64,000 nt of DNA from Candidatus Zhuqueibacterota bacterium (GCA_022616415.1 JAKEEU010000359.1:1-64000); one strand, 5' to 3'; positions 1 through 13,580 are shown, counted from the stretch's first letter. Notes: generated from the letters alone by a model not told the origin. Translations and numbers: made by a program.

Positions 1-500
1 GAGAACGTCGGCAAAGGCTTTTGATACCACGCGTCTTGCCGCACAGGCAGTTTGCCATCTTTAGCCAGTTGATGTGCCATCAACGTTACCAACGAAAACA
101 AACCTAAAATCGACGGCGTGCTGCGCGCAATTGCCAAATCCGACCACTGCCGTTGGGTTTCAAAACCCAAATGGGCGCGAACTTCTTCAAATGTGACTTC
201 GAGTCGCCAGCGCATCATGAACCACTTCACGATTTGGATAGGCTTGATCGTCAGGTCTGTACACAAGAGTGCTTGTGGATCGAATTTGTTTTTCGGATCG
301 CGGATCAGCACCCAACGCATCGGTAGCGCGGGTTCTCCGCTGTGATACCACACGGCGGTTGCCGAAGCAATCTCAATCACACGTCGGCCTTCGCTGTACC
401 ACTGTGGAAATGTCACCCGTGTCCATTTGGTTTTTGGATTTTTTAAAACCTCTTCCAAGGTCGGCAACCGTTTGCCTTTCACGCGTGGTCGTCCCATCAT
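1..500 (-). pseudogene. DDE transposase, C-terminal half (IS701/IS4-like), cut by window edge
   Basis: The minus strand reads continuously from a tandem ATG at 500-495 to the left edge. The translation is typical of the C-terminal half of DDE transposases annotated as IS701 or IS4-like, with blocks MGRPRVKGKRLPTLEEVL, RWVLIRDPKNKFDPQALLC, RWRLEVTFEEVRAHLGFETQ and SDLAIARSTPSILGLFSLVT. In full-length relatives the GRPRxKGKRLP block lies mid-protein. Here an in-frame TAA sits six codons before the first ATG, and no N-terminal half is visible between 500 and the next gene at 607, so the 5' half is missing. The 3' end is outside the window, so intactness there and the terminal inverted repeats cannot be judged. 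Family recognition is firm; the exact IS family is less sure. Confidence 0.75.
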
Positions 501-1323: not shown

Positions 1324-2910
1324 ATGGAAACAGAACCTCCGAAACAAATTTTTACTTGCCTCCTCAAAGCCTTCACGCCAACCATAGCCAAAAAGTTACG
1401 ATTATCCCACCTCGGGCCTCTCTTTCAGATTCGTTTGCAGCAGCTCATCAACCGGCTGGGCCTGCCGGAATATACGCTGTTTGCGCTCTCCGCGATTTTA
1501 ACCGGCGTTGCCGCGGGACTGGCGGCGGTGGCGTTCCACGATACGATCGTTTTTCTCTATGCGCTCTTGGGCCTCGCCGCCGGCTTTCTGGCGCTCGCTT
1601 TCATCCGCTATTCGGATTGGCTGCACAAATTTTTTCATCGAAAAAAGCCGAGGCGCCGGCGCCAAACCGTGGTAATGGCCGGCGTCGGGTTGCTCGTGGG
1701 AATCAGCGGCTTCTTTTTTCACGACATTTTGGGAATTGGCTACGAAGGCATCAACCGCGTGTTGGCGGGTGAAACCGTCTGGCACGCGGCTTTGATTCTT
1801 CTGCTGCTGAAATTCATTCTCGTGCCGATGGTATTGGAGTCCGGCGGCTTCGGCGGCGTCTTTGCGCCCTCGCTGTTTCTCGGCAGCATGTTGGGATTTC
1901 TCTATGCCTTCGCCGTCAATCTGGCTTCGGCCTATACCGGCGTCACGGTTTCGGCAACGACTTTCATTTTGGTGGGAATGGGCGCGGTGCTGGCGGCGGT
2001 CAACAGCATTCCGATGGCGGCGATCATGATCCTTTTTGAGATGACCAACAACTACAGCTTTATTTTGCCATTGATGCTCGGCGTCGTGTGCAGCACCATC
2101 GTCGTCCACGTCACCGTAAAGGATTCGGTGCATTCGCTGAAATTGCGGCAGGCCGGATACCGCCTGGCGGGTACGCGTGAGAAAACACTTTTGCAAAGCC
2201 TTTTGGTTAATGAAGCGATGCGGCGTGACGACATCGTGCTGCTGCCGGAAGAGCTGCGGCTGGAGGAAATGGTGAAAATTTGTGTGGCGTCGCCGCACGA
2301 GTGTTTTTACACGCAGGACAAAAACGGCAAATTGACCGGCACCATTACCACCAGCGAGTTGCGCCAAATCATCACCGAATACGAAACTTTGCGCCAAAGT
2401 GGATTGGTGGCCAAAGACCTGGCCGTGCCCAAGGTCATCACGGTAAAAGAAGACGACGATCTGGAAACGGTTATGCACCTGTTCGGGCAGGGCACAGCGG
2501 ACGAGTTTCCGGTGGTAGCCAGTGACGATCCCGATCGCGTCGTGGGTACGATTTGGCGGCAGGATTTGATCAACGCCTACAACAAGGCGAGCTTGAAACA
2601 CAATCTCGCCGACGGCATGGCGCGCAATCTGCGAACGCTGCAGAAGACCGGCTATGTCCGCATCGCGGATGGCTTTGTTTTGGCGGAAAAGGAAGCGCCC
2701 CCTTCCTTCATCGGCAAAACGCTCGCCGATCTGAAGCTGCGCTCACAATATGGCATCGAAGTATTGATGATCCGCCGGCCACAAGATCCGTATGATGACG
2801 AAGATGATAATGGTGATGCCAGGTTGCCCGACGTCAAATATAAGATTCAAGATGGCGACCTTCTCGTTTTGTTCGCACCGGACAAAAGCTTGGAGTCGGT
2901 AGAGTGGTAA
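1324..2910 (+). CDS. ClC-family chloride channel-like protein with CBS pair and TrkA-C domain, missing the filter helices
   Basis: The C-terminal half of a ClC transmembrane domain is clear: FLYALLGLAAGFLALAFIRY, a GYEGINRVL helix, and the helix-N motif GGFGGVFAPSLFLG near residue 180. It is followed by the subunit-interface helices, two CBS domains (about 290-345 and 365-425) and a TrkA-C-like domain (about 440-528). The family normally has helices C-H between helix B and the segment starting FLYALLG, carrying the GSGIP and GREGP chloride-site motifs. Here the helix-B-like segment (LTGVAAGLAAVAFHDTIV) joins straight to the later segment, so about 150-200 residues are absent and neither motif occurs. 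The 528-residue length still exceeds half a normal protein because of the regulatory tail. It is tail-to-tail with the next gene, two bases apart. Conductance or exchange is doubtful. Confidence 0.8.
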   Translation: METEPPKQIFTCLLKAFTPTIAKKLRLSHLGPLFQIRLQQLINRLGLPEYTLFALSAILTGVAAGLAAVAFHDTIVFLYALLGLAAGFLALAFIRYSDWLHKFFHRKKPRRRRQTVVMAGVGLLVGISGFFFHDILGIGYEGINRVLAGETVWHAALILLLLKFILVPMVLESGGFGGVFAPSLFLGSMLGFLYAFAVNLASAYTGVTVSATTFILVGMGAVLAAVNSIPMAAIMILFEMTNNYSFILPLMLGVVCSTIVVHVTVKDSVHSLKLRQAGYRLAGTREKTLLQSLLVNEAMRRDDIVLLPEELRLEEMVKICVASPHECFYTQDKNGKLTGTITTSELRQIITEYETLRQSGLVAKDLAVPKVITVKEDDDLETVMHLFGQGTADEFPVVASDDPDRVVGTIWRQDLINAYNKASLKHNLADGMARNLRTLQKTGYVRIADGFVLAEKEAPPSFIGKTLADLKLRSQYGIEVLMIRRPQDPYDDEDDNGDARLPDVKYKIQDGDLLVLFAPDKSLESVEW

Positions 2911-2912
2911 AG

Positions 2913-4013
2913 CTATTTTAAGGGCGGCGGAGGGTACCACGGTTTGGCGGCGACAAAATTCGGGTCGTTGAAAAGCTCGGTGATGAATGGATTCAAAATG
3001 GACGATTCAAGCGGTTCGTAGCGCTCGTCGACAGGATCCCAACAACTGATTTGGGAGTCTTGCACGATATATTCGTTAACGTGATAGGGCCGGATGTCGA
3101 AGGGCAGCATGGTGGTGTCGCCCTGCCGGCGCAGAACGATGAATTTTTTGCGCAAGACCATGAGCATCCCAAGCTCGATCATCACGTTGGGATTGAATCC
3201 GGTAACGTCGATAATGCCGAAATGTGAGGAGCGAATTTGCCTCATGATGTCTTCAATGACGATGCCCGTGCCGTGGCGGTAGACATAGTGCCGCGCCTGA
3301 ATTTGCCTTTGTTCCAGGAAATTTTTTACACAGGCTTCCACGCTGATAAATTCAGGTGTGAACGGCCTGGCGATAAATCCCGAGCGATACGGCGTGAGAA
3401 TTTCCTGGAAGCCGTATTCGAGGATGGAATCGGTAAAGAGGCGAATGGCTTCGGTCGTCTGCCTTTGGTTCAGGTCGAACGTATCGGCCTTCCATATAAT
3501 GAGCGCGATCGGCTTCGCAATGCGCTCCAGCAGATCCAAAACTTCCTCCGTGAATTTGCCGGAAATTGGCAGCTCGATGGAATAGATTCCCCACGTCACG
3601 TCTCTAAAGATCAAGGGGACGGCTATAATCGAGTCCGTCTCCTGAAAAATATTGAGGTACAGCGGATCGATGTCTCTCCCCGCCGCTTCATTTTTAACCG
3701 GCTTTTTCAAATCCTGGCTTTTGATATTCTCGATCCACACCGGCTGGCGGCAGCGATACACCCAGGTCCAGATGCTGTTTACACTTTCTCCGACTTGAAA
3801 TGGCTTGGCTCCACCCCGGCGGCTGGTGTCGTAGCTTGAAACAAAAGGCCGAAGAATGACGCCGTTTCTTCCCTCTTCCTTCCAGATCAGATCGATAATG
3901 TGAGGGTTGAGCATGTTGATGAGCACCTTGTTGATGGCATTGATAATTCGTTCTGCCTCCGGCTTGGTCAAGGTGTCCAGCGTCAGGCTCAGTTTTTCCA
4001 ATTCACTCAACAT
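2913..4013 (-). CDS. GAF domain fused to a TIR / nucleoside deoxyribosyltransferase-like domain
   Basis: Residues about 20-175 have the look of a GAF domain, including SIIAVPLIFRDVTWGIYSIE and the long closing helix. A linker leads to an alpha/beta domain (about 208-345) starting SGFIARPFTPEF. It contains IRSSHFGIIDVTGFNPNV at about 261-277, MIELG with a candidate catalytic Glu280, and a KKFIVLRRQG strand. The D-[VL]-T-G-x-N-P-N-V-x-x-E-[LI]-G signature is shared by nucleoside 2-deoxyribosyltransferase-like and TIR-like proteins, several of which cleave N-glycosidic bonds (NAD or nucleosides) in defence systems. Whether this one is an enzyme is inference. It is last of four minus-strand genes, 72 bases after the methylase, so it may be co-transcribed. 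A GAF domain could sense a small ligand such as a cyclic nucleotide. Confidence 0.6.
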   Translation of the reverse strand: MLSELEKLSLTLDTLTKPEAERIINAINKVLINMLNPHIIDLIWKEEGRNGVILRPFVSSYDTSRRGGAKPFQVGESVNSIWTWVYRCRQPVWIENIKSQDLKKPVKNEAAGRDIDPLYLNIFQETDSIIAVPLIFRDVTWGIYSIELPISGKFTEEVLDLLERIAKPIALIIWKADTFDLNQRQTTEAIRLFTDSILEYGFQEILTPYRSGFIARPFTPEFISVEACVKNFLEQRQIQARHYVYRHGTGIVIEDIMRQIRSSHFGIIDVTGFNPNVMIELGMLMVLRKKFIVLRRQGDTTMLPFDIRPYHVNEYIVQDSQISCWDPVDERYEPLESSILNPFITELFNDPNFVAAKPWYPPPPLK

Positions 4014-4085
4014 GATGGCCTCCTTTCTGAATCTGCCAATAACTTGCTGCGGATCCTTAGCAGTCAGCCCCTGATTGGTAGATGA

Positions 4086-4964
4086 TCAAACAAAACTTTG
4101 CAGCCAGTCAAGAGTACGACCGATCAACAACTCCGTTTTCTTTTCGTGATGGGTGCTTTTCATGGCCACGGTTTTCACTTCAAAATTGCAACGTTTAGCC
4201 AATGATCTGATTTCGCTTGCATCGTCATAAGTCATTAAGAAATCGCCGGCACAACGCGCCGCCAGTTCAAAGATGGCCGGATGATCGATTTCAGAATATT
4301 TGTAGAGCCGTCTTCCGGCTTTGGTGTAAGGCGGATCGATAAAAAACATCACGTCTTCACGGTTGGCATTTTCTTCCATGACCTTCAAGCCATCGCCCTC
4401 GATAAAATCAATTTTGTCCTTGACAAGCGCGATGGCCAAAATGCGCTTTTTCAACGTTTGTGGATACCAACGCGACAGAAGGCCTTTGCCATTCTCTCCA
4501 AATTTTAGCAACCCAGCTCCCGGTGCAAGGATACCGCCGCGATTAACGCGATTTTTTAAAATGGCAACAAAAGCTCTTTCGCGCGTTGACACTGACTCCT
4601 TCTCAAAAATCGCCTTTACACTTTCCTCTGTAACTTCAAACGAGGTGATGCGATTCGCCAGCCACTTTGCATCGTTGGACAGGATAATTTGCCACACTGC
4701 TGCAACATCTTCGTCCCGCTCAACCATCGTGGCTCGGCTCACCAATTTTTCAAAAACAGCAGTCAAGCTGACGATGCCACCGCCGGCAAAAGGCTCGATG
4801 AGTTCCTTCAATGCGGCACGTTTTCGGTTCAACCAAAGCCGAATATACGGGATGAGCCATGTTTTACCACCGGCATACCGAAAAGGACTGCGCATGGGAA
4901 TGACTGCCACATTGATTGCATTTCGTGGCACCGAGTTTTTGTCAGTTAGCGCCGTTTGTTGCAT
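4086..4964 (-). CDS. DNA adenine-N6 methyltransferase, D12 class (Dam-like)
   Basis: This 292-residue protein carries the D12-class motifs in canonical order: FRYAGGK (28-34) and EPFAGGG (57-63) for S-adenosylmethionine binding, and DPPYT (210-214), the catalytic DPPY motif for adenine N6 methylation. The length fits Dam/DpnM-type enzymes. It would methylate a short DNA sequence, not predictable here. The gene starts 12 bases after the PD-(D/E)XK-like gene ends and follows a ParB-like gene, so the three probably form one transcript. A solitary methylase would be a housekeeping or phage gene, but the nuclease-like neighbour suggests a restriction-modification or other defence role. The first ATG leaves a 24-residue extension before the first motif; the in-frame ATG at MRSPFRY is an alternative start. 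Confidence 0.9.
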   Translation of the reverse strand: MQQTALTDKNSVPRNAINVAVIPMRSPFRYAGGKTWLIPYIRLWLNRKRAALKELIEPFAGGGIVSLTAVFEKLVSRATMVERDEDVAAVWQIILSNDAKWLANRITSFEVTEESVKAIFEKESVSTRERAFVAILKNRVNRGGILAPGAGLLKFGENGKGLLSRWYPQTLKKRILAIALVKDKIDFIEGDGLKVMEENANREDVMFFIDPPYTKAGRRLYKYSEIDHPAIFELAARCAGDFLMTYDDASEIRSLAKRCNFEVKTVAMKSTHHEKKTELLIGRTLDWLQSFV

Positions 4965-4976
4965 AGAATGTCATCG

Positions 4977-5849
4977 CTATAGCACTGCCGGTATCACCGT
5001 CTTGCACCATTCCAGATATCGCCAATCGGCGAGAACCGCATGATTAGCCTGCCAAGCCCAATGGGCGATACGGCAACGATCAAACAATATCCCGGTTTTA
5101 CGTGCATAATATTGCCAGTTGTCGTGTGGAATTCGATGTGGAATGTAAAATGACCGGATTAGCGGGCTTGTCTTGGGATCAGCTATCCACTGCTCCCAAA
5201 AGATTTCCGGCTGCAACTCAGCAACTTTTTTATCCCAATTTTCACCTGCGGCACACTGCCCAAACATGAGTAATTTACTGGGCATTTTGTCGTTGAAGTC
5301 TTTCCATGCCACAAGATCGACTTTATCGTCTTTTCTTTGCAACGTCGGTTGTTGTCTGAAACCTTGACCTTCTCCCATTTGGCGACAAAATTCACTAATC
5401 GCGTCTCGAAACCCAGTGAAATCGCTTCTCTGCCGTGTGCCAAATTTAAAGACCTTCCCTTGAAGGTATTGCGCAGCCGCAATACAAGACAAATCCTCAA
5501 AGAGATGCCAAGGATTCACCAGTGCGCCAGGAACGGGCTTCCATCCAAAATAAGACAGGCAAAGACAAAAAATATAAGCGAGGCGATCTTCCCATTGGGG
5601 CTTGGCTTGAACGACGCGCGCGTTTTGCAAAACGAATGGATAGCCCTCGCCTGCCGCCTTTTCACGATGCTCGATTTCTCGCATAACTTCTAAAGACAAT
5701 TCTTCGTCCGCCTCGTCATTGCGTCCAATTTGTAGAGCACTTAGTAAATCGCCGGCGCTCGCATTTTTGTCACCGGCCTCGAGTGCGCTCAGCTCGAGCC
5801 AATCAGCAAGCTCAATGACATCCTTTAAATTGCTGGGCAAACGTGGCAT
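4977..5849 (-). CDS. Putative PD-(D/E)XK-fold nuclease, uncharacterised family
   Basis: I do not recognise a named family, but the C-terminal half has a restriction-endonuclease-like pattern: a helix with Glu118 (WHLFEDLSCIAAAQYLQG), a strand with Asp178 in DKVDLVAWKDF, then a strand ending MFGQCAAG (195-202) followed by NWDKK. The order E ... D ... [E/Q]-x-x, with conserved Gln in place of Glu, is typical of divergent PD-(D/E)XK nucleases. A later block (FYIPHRIP ... ILFDRCRIAHWA) also looks conserved rather than random. The N-terminal 70 residues are helical. It sits 7 bases after the ParB-like gene and 12 bases before a D12 methylase, which suits a restriction partner. The nuclease call is an inference from motif order and context. 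Confidence 0.5.
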   Translation of the reverse strand: MPRLPSNLKDVIELADWLELSALEAGDKNASAGDLLSALQIGRNDEADEELSLEVMREIEHREKAAGEGYPFVLQNARVVQAKPQWEDRLAYIFCLCLSYFGWKPVPGALVNPWHLFEDLSCIAAAQYLQGKVFKFGTRQRSDFTGFRDAISEFCRQMGEGQGFRQQPTLQRKDDKVDLVAWKDFNDKMPSKLLMFGQCAAGENWDKKVAELQPEIFWEQWIADPKTSPLIRSFYIPHRIPHDNWQYYARKTGILFDRCRIAHWAWQANHAVLADWRYLEWCKTVIPAVL

Positions 5850-5856
5850 ATCACTC

Positions 5857-6990
5857 CTATCTCCGACGAGCTTGCTTCGTGTACTTCGGTTTCATCTCGG
5901 CATGGATGGTTTTGGCGATCTCCTGGATGTCTTGCATCGTTTTATATGAATCGTCATCGCCGTTGTAGCCTGTGGTAACGGTTGCTTTGGCTTGCTGCAA
6001 TTCCGTCTTTGCGCTGGTTAACGCTTCTCGGAAACGGCGCTCATCGCCGATACTAATGTCATACGCTTTCTCCAGGGAGTATCCGGAACGTAGGGCATCC
6101 CTAGCTGCGGGTTTGCTAATGACGTCGCGCAGCCATTTGAGATGTGGATTCTGTTTTTGAACCACCGGCTCTTTGTTTTCTGATTTCTTGCCATATAGCC
6201 ATAACATCAACTCATTAAGATTTGACAAATGCTCCCTATCTTCAGGGACTGGCTTATCCTTTAAAAAGCTCTCTGAAGAGATACCGAGAAAATCTTGAAA
6301 TTCGGGATAATCCAAAGCGGTGTAGAGATGAGAAAAATAGAAGCGGTTACGAAAGCGATCTTCGACTTGAAAATCTGTTTGCTGTTCGGCTTGTTGAAGC
6401 ACCTTGTAACCACGATAGAGACGTTCTACGGTAGCATGCCTGTCGCCAATTCTTCGCGCGATTTCATCAAGAGAAAGGCCGGTCTCCTTGTGAACTTGGG
6501 CCACGTATCGGGCTTTACTAAAAGCGTCCCATGGCTTCGGGCTATTGATATGACGAAACGTGAGGAATGTCCATAGCTTAAAACGATCTTCATAGATCGA
6601 AACAGGCACTTCGCGAATTCCATCCTTGGCAGCCTCATCAATCGTCGGCATATTGGTGGCACGCAATTGCTCGCGCCAATCATCCCTAAGCAAAATTAAT
6701 ATTGCTGCCAAACGACGATTACCCTCAATAACAATAAACTCAGTTTTCTCGTCAGCAGGATTGTCATCCGGATTTTGAGGGATGACAAACATCGGTTCTT
6801 CCGGAAAATAACCGTTATAAGCAATGGAAAAAACCAGTTCATCCACAGCCATCTCAGTCCACAATACTTTTAAGATTTCAAACTGCGTTTTGGCAAGTGA
6901 ACCGGCCCCCGATGCCAACCTGGGATTATTCGCATCGAGAAGCAAGCGCTCAATCGGCTTGTATACGATTTTTTGTTGTCCGGTATCCAT
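5857..6990 (-). CDS. ParB/sulfiredoxin-like domain protein with helix-turn-helix
   Basis: The N-terminal domain begins with a ParB-type segment (KPIERLLLDANNPRLASG, residues 11-28) and holds FIVIEGNRRLAAI (85-97), matching the G-[EN]-R-R motif that binds nucleotide in ParB-like proteins. A helix-turn-helix follows at about 171-196 (GLSLDEIARRIGDRHATVER). The C-terminal 150 residues are charged and helical with no motif I know, ending in a basic KPKYTKQARRR tail. Partition ParBs are encoded with ParA and bind parS; no ParA is present. Stand-alone ParB-like proteins with EGNRR are common in defence and mobile loci, where they may act as DNA-sequence or NTP sensors. It is first of the putative minus-strand operon that continues with the nuclease-like gene 7 bases downstream. 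Confidence 0.75.
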   Translation of the reverse strand: MDTGQQKIVYKPIERLLLDANNPRLASGAGSLAKTQFEILKVLWTEMAVDELVFSIAYNGYFPEEPMFVIPQNPDDNPADEKTEFIVIEGNRRLAAILILLRDDWREQLRATNMPTIDEAAKDGIREVPVSIYEDRFKLWTFLTFRHINSPKPWDAFSKARYVAQVHKETGLSLDEIARRIGDRHATVERLYRGYKVLQQAEQQTDFQVEDRFRNRFYFSHLYTALDYPEFQDFLGISSESFLKDKPVPEDREHLSNLNELMLWLYGKKSENKEPVVQKQNPHLKWLRDVISKPAARDALRSGYSLEKAYDISIGDERRFREALTSAKTELQQAKATVTTGYNGDDDSYKTMQDIQEIAKTIHAEMKPKYTKQARRR

Positions 6991-10937: not shown

Positions 10938-13388
10938 CTAATCATCATAATCGGTGTTCCAGGTAAATGTGCCGTCGCTGAACATGAGCTGAATGCTGGC
11001 GCGCATGTCGCTGGCTTGTTTCGCCCGAATGCTATAGGCCAGAAAAGATGACGGCGTCACGGGGATCGACAGCCCGGTGGCGATTTTGATCGCGCCATCA
11101 GTGCGATGGTTGCCGGCCACCGGATTGATGGTGACTTCCAGGCGGTACATCGTAGAACCCGATAACGGCGCAGCGGTTTCGATAGGCCCGGTAACGTCCA
11201 GGCGCCATTCATCGACATTTCCCCAAGTCGCTGCGCCGCGGCGGCGCAAGCCCTCGGTCTTCTTCACCCGCCAGTTGCCGGCATTGTAATCGTAATACTC
11301 CGACACCGGTCCGATCACGGTTTCAATCTGCCGGCGGTGATCGTAGGTCATGGTCTTGTTGCCGTAGGAAATCACATTGCCCAAATTGTCATACGTAAAA
11401 CCCGTGCCGCTAAAGTTGAACAGGCGATTATTGAGTTTGTTATTGCCGTTGTTCGGATCATTATAGCTGTAGGAATAGAGCATACCGTTAACGAACTTTT
11501 TGGTGAGGTTGCCGTTGCGGTCGTAGCGAAAGCCCAGGTCGTTGTAAGCGGAGCTGTTGGCCGAATCCAGGCGGCTGATGCTGTCGTAGGTGTAAGTCGA
11601 AACCTCGGAGCCGAGCGGGCTGGTGGTTTTAATGCGTTTGATGTTGCCAACGGCATCGTATTGGGTGAGCTCTTCTTTGAAAACCGTCACGGTGCCGCCG
11701 GCGGCCGAGGTTGAATAGTCAATCTTTTTCACCAAGCCGGAATCATTGTAAGTGTACGATCCGGAAATGACATCGCTGCCGAGCTGCACGCTCGCCAGGC
11801 TGCCGTCGCCGTTGTAAGTGTAACGGGCAACTTCGCTATATTGGTATTTGATGATGAGCTGGGGCGCGAGACTGGGTGGGCTCGACTCGCGGCTTGGAAA
11901 TATGTATTCCTGCCCATCCGGAAAGGCAACCTCATTGACCGCCCATAACAGAATACCATAATTTGAAGCGGAATTGGCGATCCATTTTTTGGCCAATGCG
12001 GTCAGATTGAATGGCACCCAAGTGCTGAGTGTGGTTGGCAATTCTCGCGTGTCCACCGGCACGGCGCGGGCATCTTGGCCGTTCAAGCCGACCCCGGCCT
12101 CGGTCCAATTCACGCCGTTTTGCGCTTGGAACCAGTTGACCTGCCCTTCATTCCAGCTCTTGAGCAGCTCGTGGACCTGGACAGGACGTTTGTATATCGT
12201 GCTGGTATTGCCGCCATAAAAACTCATCTGAGACAAATAGAGATGGCAAGTTGCGTCCACGATGCGAGCGGTATCCGGCAGACTGATTCCGCTCAAATCG
12301 AATTTTAGCAAAGTACGGTATGATGACCAAACCGATCCGATTTGGCCGCCGCCAATGCTCAATTGCGAACTATTGCCATTGAAGTCGCCTCCCTGATAGC
12401 GGATGCTGGCATCCTGACTCGGAGAAGTTATTTCCCATTGCGGATCGATGATGATGGGCCGCGGCGGCTGGCGCATGAGCCAGCTATAGGTGATGCCGGC
12501 CATCATAATCAAGTCCGGTCCGGACGGAAAAAAGCTGCGCAACACCTGTTCCGGCTCAGCCGGAGGCTGGCCCGAGCCATAAAAGGCAAAATCTTCGGGC
12601 ATATAAAAAAGCGCCCGGCCGTTTGGGGTTTTAAAATCGATGCGGCTTTTGCCCTCGTACTGAATAATGGGGAAACGGCCGGGCATGCGGCCGTGCGAAA
12701 TTTTGACGCCTTCCGCAAAGGCGAATAAGGTTGTATCCAAAATCACTTTGGCGAGAAAAACCAGGTGCGCGCGGTCATCCTTCATGCCGTAACGCTGCGG
12801 ATCGGGCAGACTGTCACGAAAGGATTGGCGCAGGCGGATTTCTTCTTTGAGGCGACCGGCGTCATACACGTATTGAATATCAACCCCGGGAAAGACATCG
12901 AGGAAAGTCAATAGATTTTCCGTGACGATCGGATTCTCCAGGCGAGCGCTATCCAGCAGCGCGACGCGCCGGGCAATGGGATCAAAATAACCCATGGCCA
13001 CGGGTGTAAGCTCGAAAAACTGTCCGCCGTTGATTTCAAAACGGATCGCGGCGCGTGCCGGGCCGGTTTTGCGGATGGAGCAGCGATAAAGGCCTTCGCT
13101 CCCGGCAAAATCGGTAGCGCTGCCGTTGATCGGCGCAAAATGGGGAGCAAGCTCGCGAAACTCGCCTTCCAGGGTGCGATAATGCCAGGGGGCGGCGCGC
13201 ACCACTTTGTAAAAATAGCCGTCGTCGCCGGCGTAGGTTTTGGAATGCTCGTCGCGCAGCTCGACGATTTCCCGGCGGGAATCGAAGCGGTGCGGATCGC
13301 TATCATCATCGACAAGCGCTTTTTCCTGGGCCGAGGCGAAGGCGCCGAGCCAAAGGAAAATCGCCAGACATGAAAAAGTTTTGCTCAT
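10938..13388 (-). CDS. Secreted DNRLRE-domain / Rhs YD-repeat protein (N-terminal part, interrupted by TAG)
   Basis: The start at 13388 gives a clear signal peptide (MSKTFSCLAIFLWLGAFASA); the 24 codons in front of it are discarded, and AGGGATGG precedes the chosen ATG. Residues about 30-330 are a secreted beta-rich region with no family I can name. A DNRLRE domain follows (about 335-520: YRTLLKFDLSGISLP ... VQVHELLKSWNEGQVNW ... YGILLW). YD repeats then run to about 720 (ARYTYNGDGSLASV, YDAVGNIKRI, FRYDRNGNLTKKF, FTYDNLGNVISYG). It stops at an in-frame TAG at 10938-10940, after which homology continues in the same frame. Such proteins are large secreted or surface-bound polymorphic toxins or adhesins. 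Product: probably truncated or a pseudogene. Confidence 0.8.
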   Translation of the reverse strand: MSKTFSCLAIFLWLGAFASAQEKALVDDDSDPHRFDSRREIVELRDEHSKTYAGDDGYFYKVVRAAPWHYRTLEGEFRELAPHFAPINGSATDFAGSEGLYRCSIRKTGPARAAIRFEINGGQFFELTPVAMGYFDPIARRVALLDSARLENPIVTENLLTFLDVFPGVDIQYVYDAGRLKEEIRLRQSFRDSLPDPQRYGMKDDRAHLVFLAKVILDTTLFAFAEGVKISHGRMPGRFPIIQYEGKSRIDFKTPNGRALFYMPEDFAFYGSGQPPAEPEQVLRSFFPSGPDLIMMAGITYSWLMRQPPRPIIIDPQWEITSPSQDASIRYQGGDFNGNSSQLSIGGGQIGSVWSSYRTLLKFDLSGISLPDTARIVDATCHLYLSQMSFYGGNTSTIYKRPVQVHELLKSWNEGQVNWFQAQNGVNWTEAGVGLNGQDARAVPVDTRELPTTLSTWVPFNLTALAKKWIANSASNYGILLWAVNEVAFPDGQEYIFPSRESSPPSLAPQLIIKYQYSEVARYTYNGDGSLASVQLGSDVISGSYTYNDSGLVKKIDYSTSAAGGTVTVFKEELTQYDAVGNIKRIKTTSPLGSEVSTYTYDSISRLDSANSSAYNDLGFRYDRNGNLTKKFVNGMLYSYSYNDPNNGNNKLNNRLFNFSGTGFTYDNLGNVISYGNKTMTYDHRRQIETVIGPVSEYYDYNAGNWRVKKTEGLRRRGAATWGNVDEWRLDVTGPIETAAPLSGSTMYRLEVTINPVAGNHRTDGAIKIATGLSIPVTPSSFLAYSIRAKQASDMRASIQLMFSDGTFTWNTDYDD

Positions 13389-13580
13389 TTTCCATCCCTT
13401 TGGTTTTGCCGAAATCGTATACTGTTCAGCGATGACTCCACGAAGGAGGTCGTTTGACAAGCATTTTTATCATGCCATTCCGGAGGAATCCTTTTGCAAA
13501 CCAGCACAGTGCGCAATTGGAAAAGGATGCTTCCAGCACAGCATTTTTCTTTGCTTTTGCAAACATCAAAAGCGGCGCAA

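What the first reader, a model, noticed from the sequence alone, without database searches (positions are those of the whole stretch)
2913..6990. Candidate four-gene defence or modification cassette: ParB-like, PD-(D/E)XK-like, D12 methylase, GAF-TIR/NDT-like
Four minus-strand genes with 7-, 12- and 72-base gaps encode a ParB/Srx protein with EGNRR and an HTH, an uncharacterised nuclease-like protein, an N6-adenine methylase and a GAF protein fused to a TIR/deoxyribosyltransferase-like domain. The methylase motifs are certain. The nuclease reading is an inference from the order Glu118, Asp178 and GQCAAG. I know of no described system with exactly this composition; the cassette is flanked by decayed genes and a transposase remnant, as defence islands often are. 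The last gene could be an abortive-infection effector triggered by a small ligand through GAF.
Basis: partly seen in the sequence, partly recalled or inferred. Interest (0 to 1): 0.8.

Follow-up and report, generated by a model that had tools for sequence, protein, structure and literature searches.

The report
ParB-type restriction-modification system
Three of the four genes belong to a widespread but apparently undescribed bacterial anti-DNA defence system in which a ParB-like protein (normally a chromosome-sorting clamp) is paired with a DNA-cutting enzyme, plus a DNA-marking enzyme that different lineages swap for unrelated types; the fourth gene is probably just a neighbour.

Summary
The four ORFs exist exactly as described. 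The cassette is best read as a three-gene restriction-modification (R-M) system. A scan anchored only on the ParB-like gene returned 160 loci (80 genome contigs from at least 14 phyla, 80 viral contigs). In 155 the 290-aa family follows immediately, usually with overlapping ends. In 135 of 136 untruncated loci with the pair, exactly one class of DNA methyltransferase lies beside it (m6A D12, m5C, or N4/N6), and the class has been swapped repeatedly on the tree. The 290-aa protein is a PD-(D/E)XK nuclease: its confident AlphaFold model matches MspJI best, and all 112 aligned members carry a lysine at one of two alternative catalytic positions. The ParB-like protein has the ParB NTP-binding and HTH domains (nearest ParB-CDP, Noc, KorB). 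The closest known system is PD-λ-5 (ParB-like A + D12 B): the D12 gene matches B, but the ParB gene lacks A's C-terminal half, and the nuclease is in no Pfam or PADLOC model. I found no description of the pair in the papers searched. The GAF-TIR/NDT gene is not a conserved partner. Restriction itself, the recognised motif and nucleotide dependence are inferred, not shown.

The parts
5857..6990 (-). ParB-like protein, 377 aa: ParB/Srx NTP-binding domain (NPR box, EGNRRLAA box), ParB-type HTH domain, long helical C-terminus; proposed DNA-site sensor of the restriction complex
   Evidence: AlphaFold pLDDT 93; Foldseek best hits ParB-CDP, Noc, KorB, E down to 2e-5, prob 1.00; profile matches ParB sequences at the GERR box; invariant P23, R24, S55, E89-L94, H147, W154, K159 over 108 sequences
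4977..5849 (-). PD-(D/E)XK nuclease subunit, 290 aa (called REA here): E118, D178, Q198, K208 as predicted active site
   Evidence: AlphaFold pLDDT 91.4, pTM 0.90; best PDB fold match MspJI; D178 in 112/112, Q198 in 110/112, E/Q118 in 111/112, Lys at 200 or 208 in 112/112; same family as phrog_14650/phrog_3984, unknown function
4086..4964 (-). D12-class N6-adenine DNA methyltransferase, 292 aa; proposed modification subunit
   Evidence: Pfam MethyltransfD12 1.7e-11; PADLOC PD-Lambda-5_B 1e-43; motifs EPFAGGG and DPPY in the translation
2913..4013 (-). GAF domain plus C-terminal NDT/TIR-like domain, 366 aa; neighbour, not part of the conserved core; possible effector
   Evidence: Pfam GAF_2 2.3e-7, NDT and CAP12-TIR sub-threshold; PADLOC TIR effector 8.9e-8; only one weak homologue (L037) in the other loci

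Best explanation
Genes 1-3 are a restriction-modification system whose restriction half is a two-protein module, a ParB-like NTP-binding DNA-binding protein plus a PD-(D/E)XK nuclease. Its modification half is an exchangeable DNA methyltransferase (here D12 m6A). Proposed working: the methyltransferase marks one short motif in host DNA; the ParB-like protein binds that motif when unmodified, through its HTH; binding (and probably NTP loading, as in ParB clamps) recruits or licenses the nuclease, which cuts the incoming DNA. Shown here: gene order, predicted folds, active-site pattern, near-obligatory linkage, methyltransferase swapping, presence on prophages and plasmids. Inferred: restriction activity, the motif, the ParB-nuclease complex, nucleotide dependence. 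The GAF-TIR/NDT gene is an accessory or unrelated neighbour.
For: (1) Scans anchored on the ParB gene only gave 160 loci; 155 carry the nuclease family, directly downstream, all but two gaps being 28 bases or less. (2) In untruncated loci with the pair, a methyltransferase lies within 2.5 kb in 62/63 genome and 73/73 viral loci, never two classes at once; background is 13 hits in 1012 kb of far flank. The 3 untruncated loci that lack the nuclease also lack a methyltransferase. (3) Three classes serve the role: D12, C5, N4/N6 (Pfam confirmed), with at least 11 changes of class on the nuclease tree by parsimony; D12 cassettes L026/L035 lie inside an N4/N6 clade at about 62-63% nuclease identity. 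Protection by unrelated enzymes is what an R-M system would show. (4) Nuclease fold: MspJI top, BsmI and HindIII also listed. The catalytic lysine is at QxK (K200) or displaced to K208, with 0 of 112 having neither. (5) ParB-type fold. (6) Mobile contexts: P2-like prophage slot between replication endonuclease and portal, including 12 E. coli genomes; plasmids. (7) PD-λ-5, with related ParB and D12 parts, is experimentally anti-phage (PMC9519451).
Against: No experiment tests this pair. MspJI similarity is at fold level with low TM (0.36) and no Foldseek E below 1e-3. K200 is confined to one clade, so the mutual exclusion is not many independent events. Two plasmid loci have the pair without a recognised methyltransferase nearby (L003, L006), and L031 likewise. 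If the ParB-nuclease pair fixes the site, each swapped-in methyltransferase must recognise the same site, which is untested. The ENxQR-type motif of ParB seems replaced (H147), so nucleotide hydrolysis may be lost or different. ParB-fold proteins bind CTP, ATP or GTP unpredictably (PMC12704722).
Confidence: 0.8

Rival explanations
1. It is simply a divergent PD-λ-5 system (ParB-like A plus D12 B), with the nuclease gene as a passenger.
For: The D12 gene matches PD-Lambda-5_B at 1e-43 and the ParB gene matches PD-Lambda-5_A models at up to 4.5e-15. PD-λ-5_A-type genes stand beside the pair in about 11-16 loci, sharing one D12 gene.
Against: The A match covers only the N-terminal ~170 of ~466 positions in the window, whereas true A genes match full length. 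The nuclease is nearly as constant as the ParB bait (155/160) and matches no PADLOC model convincingly. Loci with C5 or N4/N6 methyltransferases have no PD-λ-5_B beside the pair.
Confidence: 0.08
2. A four-component system in which the GAF-TIR/NDT protein is the abortive-infection effector, backing up the R-M genes or triggered by them, taking the place of the PD-λ-5_A Abi arm seen in other loci.
For: Same strand, 72-base gap; TIR-effector match 8.9e-8; one other cassette (L037) has a TIR/NDT-like gene immediately after its methyltransferase; other cassettes carry PD-λ-5_A in a comparable slot.
Against: No GAF-TIR homologue in the other ParB loci apart from the weak TIR-only match in L037. The C-terminal domain recurs in many other proteins of this phylum away from the cassette. 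The gap is longer than inside the core and holds weak promoter-like matches, which may be chance.
Confidence: 0.15
3. A type IV-like, modification-dependent or general anti-plasmid nuclease (GmrSD/SspE style, ParB/Srx NTPase sensing DNA), with the methyltransferase acting in regulation or anti-restriction.
For: Weak GmrSD_N match (8e-4, below cut-off); ParB/Srx-type NTPases are used in GmrSD, SspE and BrxU (established knowledge; papers listed). MspJI, the nearest nuclease fold, is itself modification-dependent (established knowledge).
Against: A near-obligatory, class-exchangeable methyltransferase is not a feature of type IV systems; no HNH domain; structural matches are to ParB/Noc/KorB, not GmrSD.
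Confidence: 0.1
4. A DNA partition or replication module of mobile elements (true ParB) rather than defence.
For: ParB fold with HTH; frequent on prophages and plasmids.
Against: Only 2 of 165 neighbourhoods have a ParA-like Walker motif gene; a nuclease partner and methyltransferase have no known role in partition; chromosomal copies are common.
Confidence: 0.03

Closest known systems
PD-λ-5 (Vassallo et al. 2022, PMC9519451; PADLOC PD-Lambda-5_A/B)
   Same: ParB-like protein beside a D12 methyltransferase; prophage setting; authors call it a compacted RM+Abi system
   Different: PD-λ-5_A models are mostly 430-510 aa with a C-terminal half that the window protein lacks; PADLOC models contain no nuclease of this family; modelled methyltransferase is D12 only
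MspJI family (modification-dependent restriction enzyme)
   Same: PD-(D/E)XK fold with a D...QxK-type active site (from memory); best PDB fold match
   Different: Low overall TM-score (0.36); no sequence match in PDB; MspJI is a single chain that recognises modified cytosine and has no ParB partner
ParB/Noc/KorB CTP-dependent DNA clamps
   Same: N-terminal NTP-binding fold and HTH domain
   Different: GERR box is GNRR, ENxQR motif apparently replaced by a sequence with invariant His147, C-terminus unlike; no ParA
Type II restriction-modification systems
   Same: Dedicated nuclease plus separate methyltransferase, on mobile DNA, methyltransferase class interchangeable
   Different: Two-protein restriction half including a putative NTP-binding ParB-fold subunit
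phrog_14650 / phrog_3984
   Same: The nuclease family itself: 108 and 99 of 112 members match
   Different: Both are annotated 'unknown function'
PDC-M38A (PADLOC candidate)
   Same: Window ParB matches positions 60-353 of its 715-position model at 4e-19
   Different: Candidate model with a further ~360 positions unmatched; no paper found

Membership tests
PD-λ-5 | PD-λ-5_B: D12 methyltransferase | tested here: met
   PDLC04018 1e-43
PD-λ-5 | PD-λ-5_A: full-length ParB-like protein with its C-terminal half | tested here: not met
   Window protein matches only about residues 12-180 of the A models; bona fide A genes in other loci match end to end
Restriction-modification (type II-like) | Nuclease with PD-(D/E)XK fold and catalytic residues | tested here: met
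   Model and fold search; D178, Q198, Lys200/208; prediction, not activity
Restriction-modification (type II-like) | Closely linked DNA methyltransferase, replaceable by other classes | tested here: met
   135 of 136 loci, three classes, repeated swaps
Restriction-modification (type II-like) | Nuclease and methyltransferase share one recognition motif; methylation protects | not testable with these tools
   Needs methylome and cleavage assays
ParB-CTPase fold | ParB/Srx NTP-binding fold plus HTH | tested here: met
   Foldseek to ParB-CDP, Noc, KorB
ParB-CTPase fold | CTP binding and clamp formation | not testable with these tools
   Nucleotide cannot be predicted from sequence (PMC12704722)
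ParABS partition | ParA partner | tested here: not met
   ParA-like motif in 2 of 165 neighbourhoods, none in the window's
GmrSD / DUF262 type IV | DUF262 domain with HNH nuclease domain | tested here: not met
   GmrSD_N below cut-off, no HNH; structure matches ParB instead
Conserved four-gene cassette incl. GAF-TIR/NDT | GAF-TIR/NDT gene recurrently linked | tested here: not met
   One weak TIR-only homologue among the other loci

The most novel reading that the evidence does not exclude
A restriction enzyme gated by a ParB-type nucleotide (CTP or other NTP) clamp: the ParB-like subunit recognises the unmodified motif, closes on DNA in an NTP-dependent way and delivers the PD-(D/E)XK nuclease, giving a new mechanistic class of R-M whose methyltransferase is freely exchanged among m6A, m5C and N4/N6 enzymes.
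Probability: 0.3. Interest if true: 0.88.

Novelty: new variant of a known kind. Interest (0 to 1): 0.74.

Why it matters
It gives a predicted function and active site to a phage-borne family labelled 'unknown function' (phrog_14650/phrog_3984), found in at least 14 phyla and in P2-like prophages of E. coli, where it can be tested directly. If right, it adds ParB clamps, so far known mainly from DNA segregation and regulation, to restriction enzymes, and it supplies a restriction partner for loci where PD-λ-5_A and its D12 methyltransferase stand beside this pair. Swapping of three methyltransferase classes against one restriction module makes the question of how R-M modification enzymes are exchanged without self-destruction accessible.

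Tried and rejected
Single-sequence searches with the 290-aa protein found nothing in genome contigs, viral contigs or its own phylum; the family is too divergent, and plasmid tblastn opened it up. Pfam, NCBIfam and PADLOC have no model for it. PD-λ-5 membership rejected on the A component. GmrSD rejected by structure. Partition rejected for lack of ParA. GAF-TIR as a conserved partner rejected. One D12 hit in L042 was a 72-aa chance ORF and was removed by stricter limits. The C5-type pair of L161 is not found in complete E. coli genomes at megablast level. The Fisher p for K200/K208 is not used as evidence because K200 is confined to one clade. The C-terminal half of PD-λ-5_A matched no Pfam family, so a HEPN nature is not claimed from my data. 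Promoter and terminator scans were uninformative.

Full report
OBSERVATION. The D12 and GAF assignments pass Pfam cut-offs; the NDT/TIR part is sub-threshold in Pfam but E 9e-8 to a PADLOC TIR effector. The 290-aa protein matches nothing in Pfam, NCBIfam, PADLOC or the PDB by sequence. PADLOC places the D12 gene in PD-Lambda-5_B (1e-43) and the N-terminal part of the ParB-like gene near PD-Lambda-5_A and PDC-M38A.

FINDING THE FAMILY. The window genome holds one copy, and none of 81 other genomes of its phylum has the 290-aa gene, so it was probably acquired horizontally. Plasmid tblastn showed the ParB and 290-aa genes adjacent in Mesorhizobium and Neorhizobium, and Vibrio and Persicobacter plasmids carry the same pair. 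I then used only the ParB alignment (A2) as bait, so that nuclease and methyltransferase linkage are unbiased: 80 genome and 80 viral loci.

LINKAGE. The 290-aa family (called REA) directly follows ParB in 155 of 160 loci; of the five exceptions two are cut by the contig end. Gaps cluster around -4 to +4 bases. The genome loci span at least 14 named phyla. A DNA methyltransferase lies within 2.5 kb in 62/63 genome and 73/73 viral untruncated REA-bearing loci, one class per locus; three untruncated loci without REA also have none; far flanks hold 13 hits per 1012 kb. Classes: D12 m6A (42 genome, 26 viral), C5 (1, 48), N4/N6 (29, 3), confirmed by Pfam on representatives. The methyltransferase may lie upstream, downstream or convergent, normally within a few bases. 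On the REA tree the class changes at least 11 times by parsimony, with starred branches forcing at least 7 for D12 and 7 for N4/N6; D12 loci L026 and L035 are nested in an N4/N6 clade at 62-63% REA identity. The tree was made before the stricter methyltransferase limits, so single placements are less sure than the overall count. This is what an R-M system with an exchangeable modification enzyme looks like.

THE NUCLEASE. AlphaFold with 112 aligned members gave pLDDT 91.4, pTM 0.90. Its best PDB match is MspJI (E 3e-3, prob 1.00, TM 0.36); BsmI and HindIII also appear. These are fold-level, not family-level, matches. Conservation: D178 112/112, Q198 110/112, E or Q at 118 in 111/112. The lysine expected two residues after Q198 is present in 14 members (GQCKTG). 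In the other 98, including the window, another residue stands there and a lysine stands at 208. Two members have both, none has neither. K200 is confined to one clade on the tree, so this is one migration of the catalytic lysine with intermediates, not many independent events; that no member lacks both is the telling part.

THE ParB-LIKE PROTEIN. AlphaFold pLDDT 93. The first 31 Foldseek hits are all ParB, Noc, KorB or Spo0J, best ParB with CDP; a sequence profile also finds ParB at the GERR box. Box I NPR, S55, the EGNRRLAA box, H147, W154 and K159 are invariant or nearly so. I read H147 as lying where ParB has its ENxQR motif (from the order of motifs, not a superposition), so nucleotide chemistry may differ. 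A 2025 survey of the ParB fold shows CTP, ATP or GTP binding that cannot be predicted from sequence; in the passages I searched it discusses fusions, not this two-gene system (PMC12704722).

RELATION TO PD-λ-5. In 16 loci a second, mostly longer ParB-like gene stands beside the pair, usually sharing its single D12 gene; most of those tested match PD-Lambda-5_A full length (L019-type genes match only N-terminally; in L124 the second hit is a fragment of a split ParB gene). Vassallo et al. [quoted passage not shown] Anantharaman et al. 2013 noted HEPN-ParB fusions and a HEPN gene in operon with a ParB and a methylase (PMC3710099). My reading (inference): the full arrangement is methyltransferase + ParB-nuclease restriction module + ParB-Abi arm; PD-λ-5 keeps the first and last, the window keeps the first two.

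THE FOURTH GENE. No GAF-TIR homologue occurs beside the other cassettes; only L037 has a TIR/NDT-like gene after its methyltransferase. The C-terminal domain is common elsewhere in the phylum on unrelated proteins. It may be an effector, but is not a defining part.

MOBILITY. 41 of 80 viral loci sit beside P2-like replication, portal or terminase genes. Twelve of 5,426 complete E. coli genomes have the pair; in the one inspected it is the D12 version in that slot, annotated only as 'ParB N-terminal domain-containing protein' and 'hypothetical protein'.

LIMITS. No activity, motif or nucleotide dependence is shown. The viral loci include near-copies. Loci were ranked by similarity to the window ParB. 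Literature search covers open-licence papers only; REBASE and subscription papers could not be checked, so a description elsewhere is possible.

Noticed in passing
window 1324-2910 (+): CLC-type chloride channel with CBS and TrkA_C domains whose Voltage_CLC match starts only at profile position 139, so the N-terminal part of the channel appears lost.
   Followed up: partly
window 3-500 (-): Open frame running off the window start that resembles a transposase by eye, but no Pfam match at 1e-3.
   Followed up: partly
window 10938-13460 (-): Large protein with disaggregatase-related and RHS repeat matches.
   Followed up: no
L082, L084, L085 (Actinomycetota); L026, L035, L038, L057, L079, L008: Composite cassettes that hold a PD-λ-5_A-type gene, one D12 methyltransferase and the ParB-nuclease pair together, suggesting that PD-λ-5 is a reduced form of a larger system.
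   Followed up: partly
L009:3347-6373, L011:5110-8130: Type I restriction HsdR-like gene directly after the nuclease gene in L009, and a similar-looking gene in L011, as if the cassette sits inside another R-M operon.
   Followed up: no
L003 (Neorhizobium plasmid): ParB-nuclease pair without a recognised methyltransferase, beside Z1, PD-(D/E)XK motif, DUF262 and TniB/Mu-type transposition genes.
   Followed up: no
phylum of the window genome (G005, G032, G048, G007 and others): The NDT/TIR-like C-terminal domain of 2913-4013 recurs on proteins of many lengths in this phylum, an effector-like domain shuffle.
   Followed up: no
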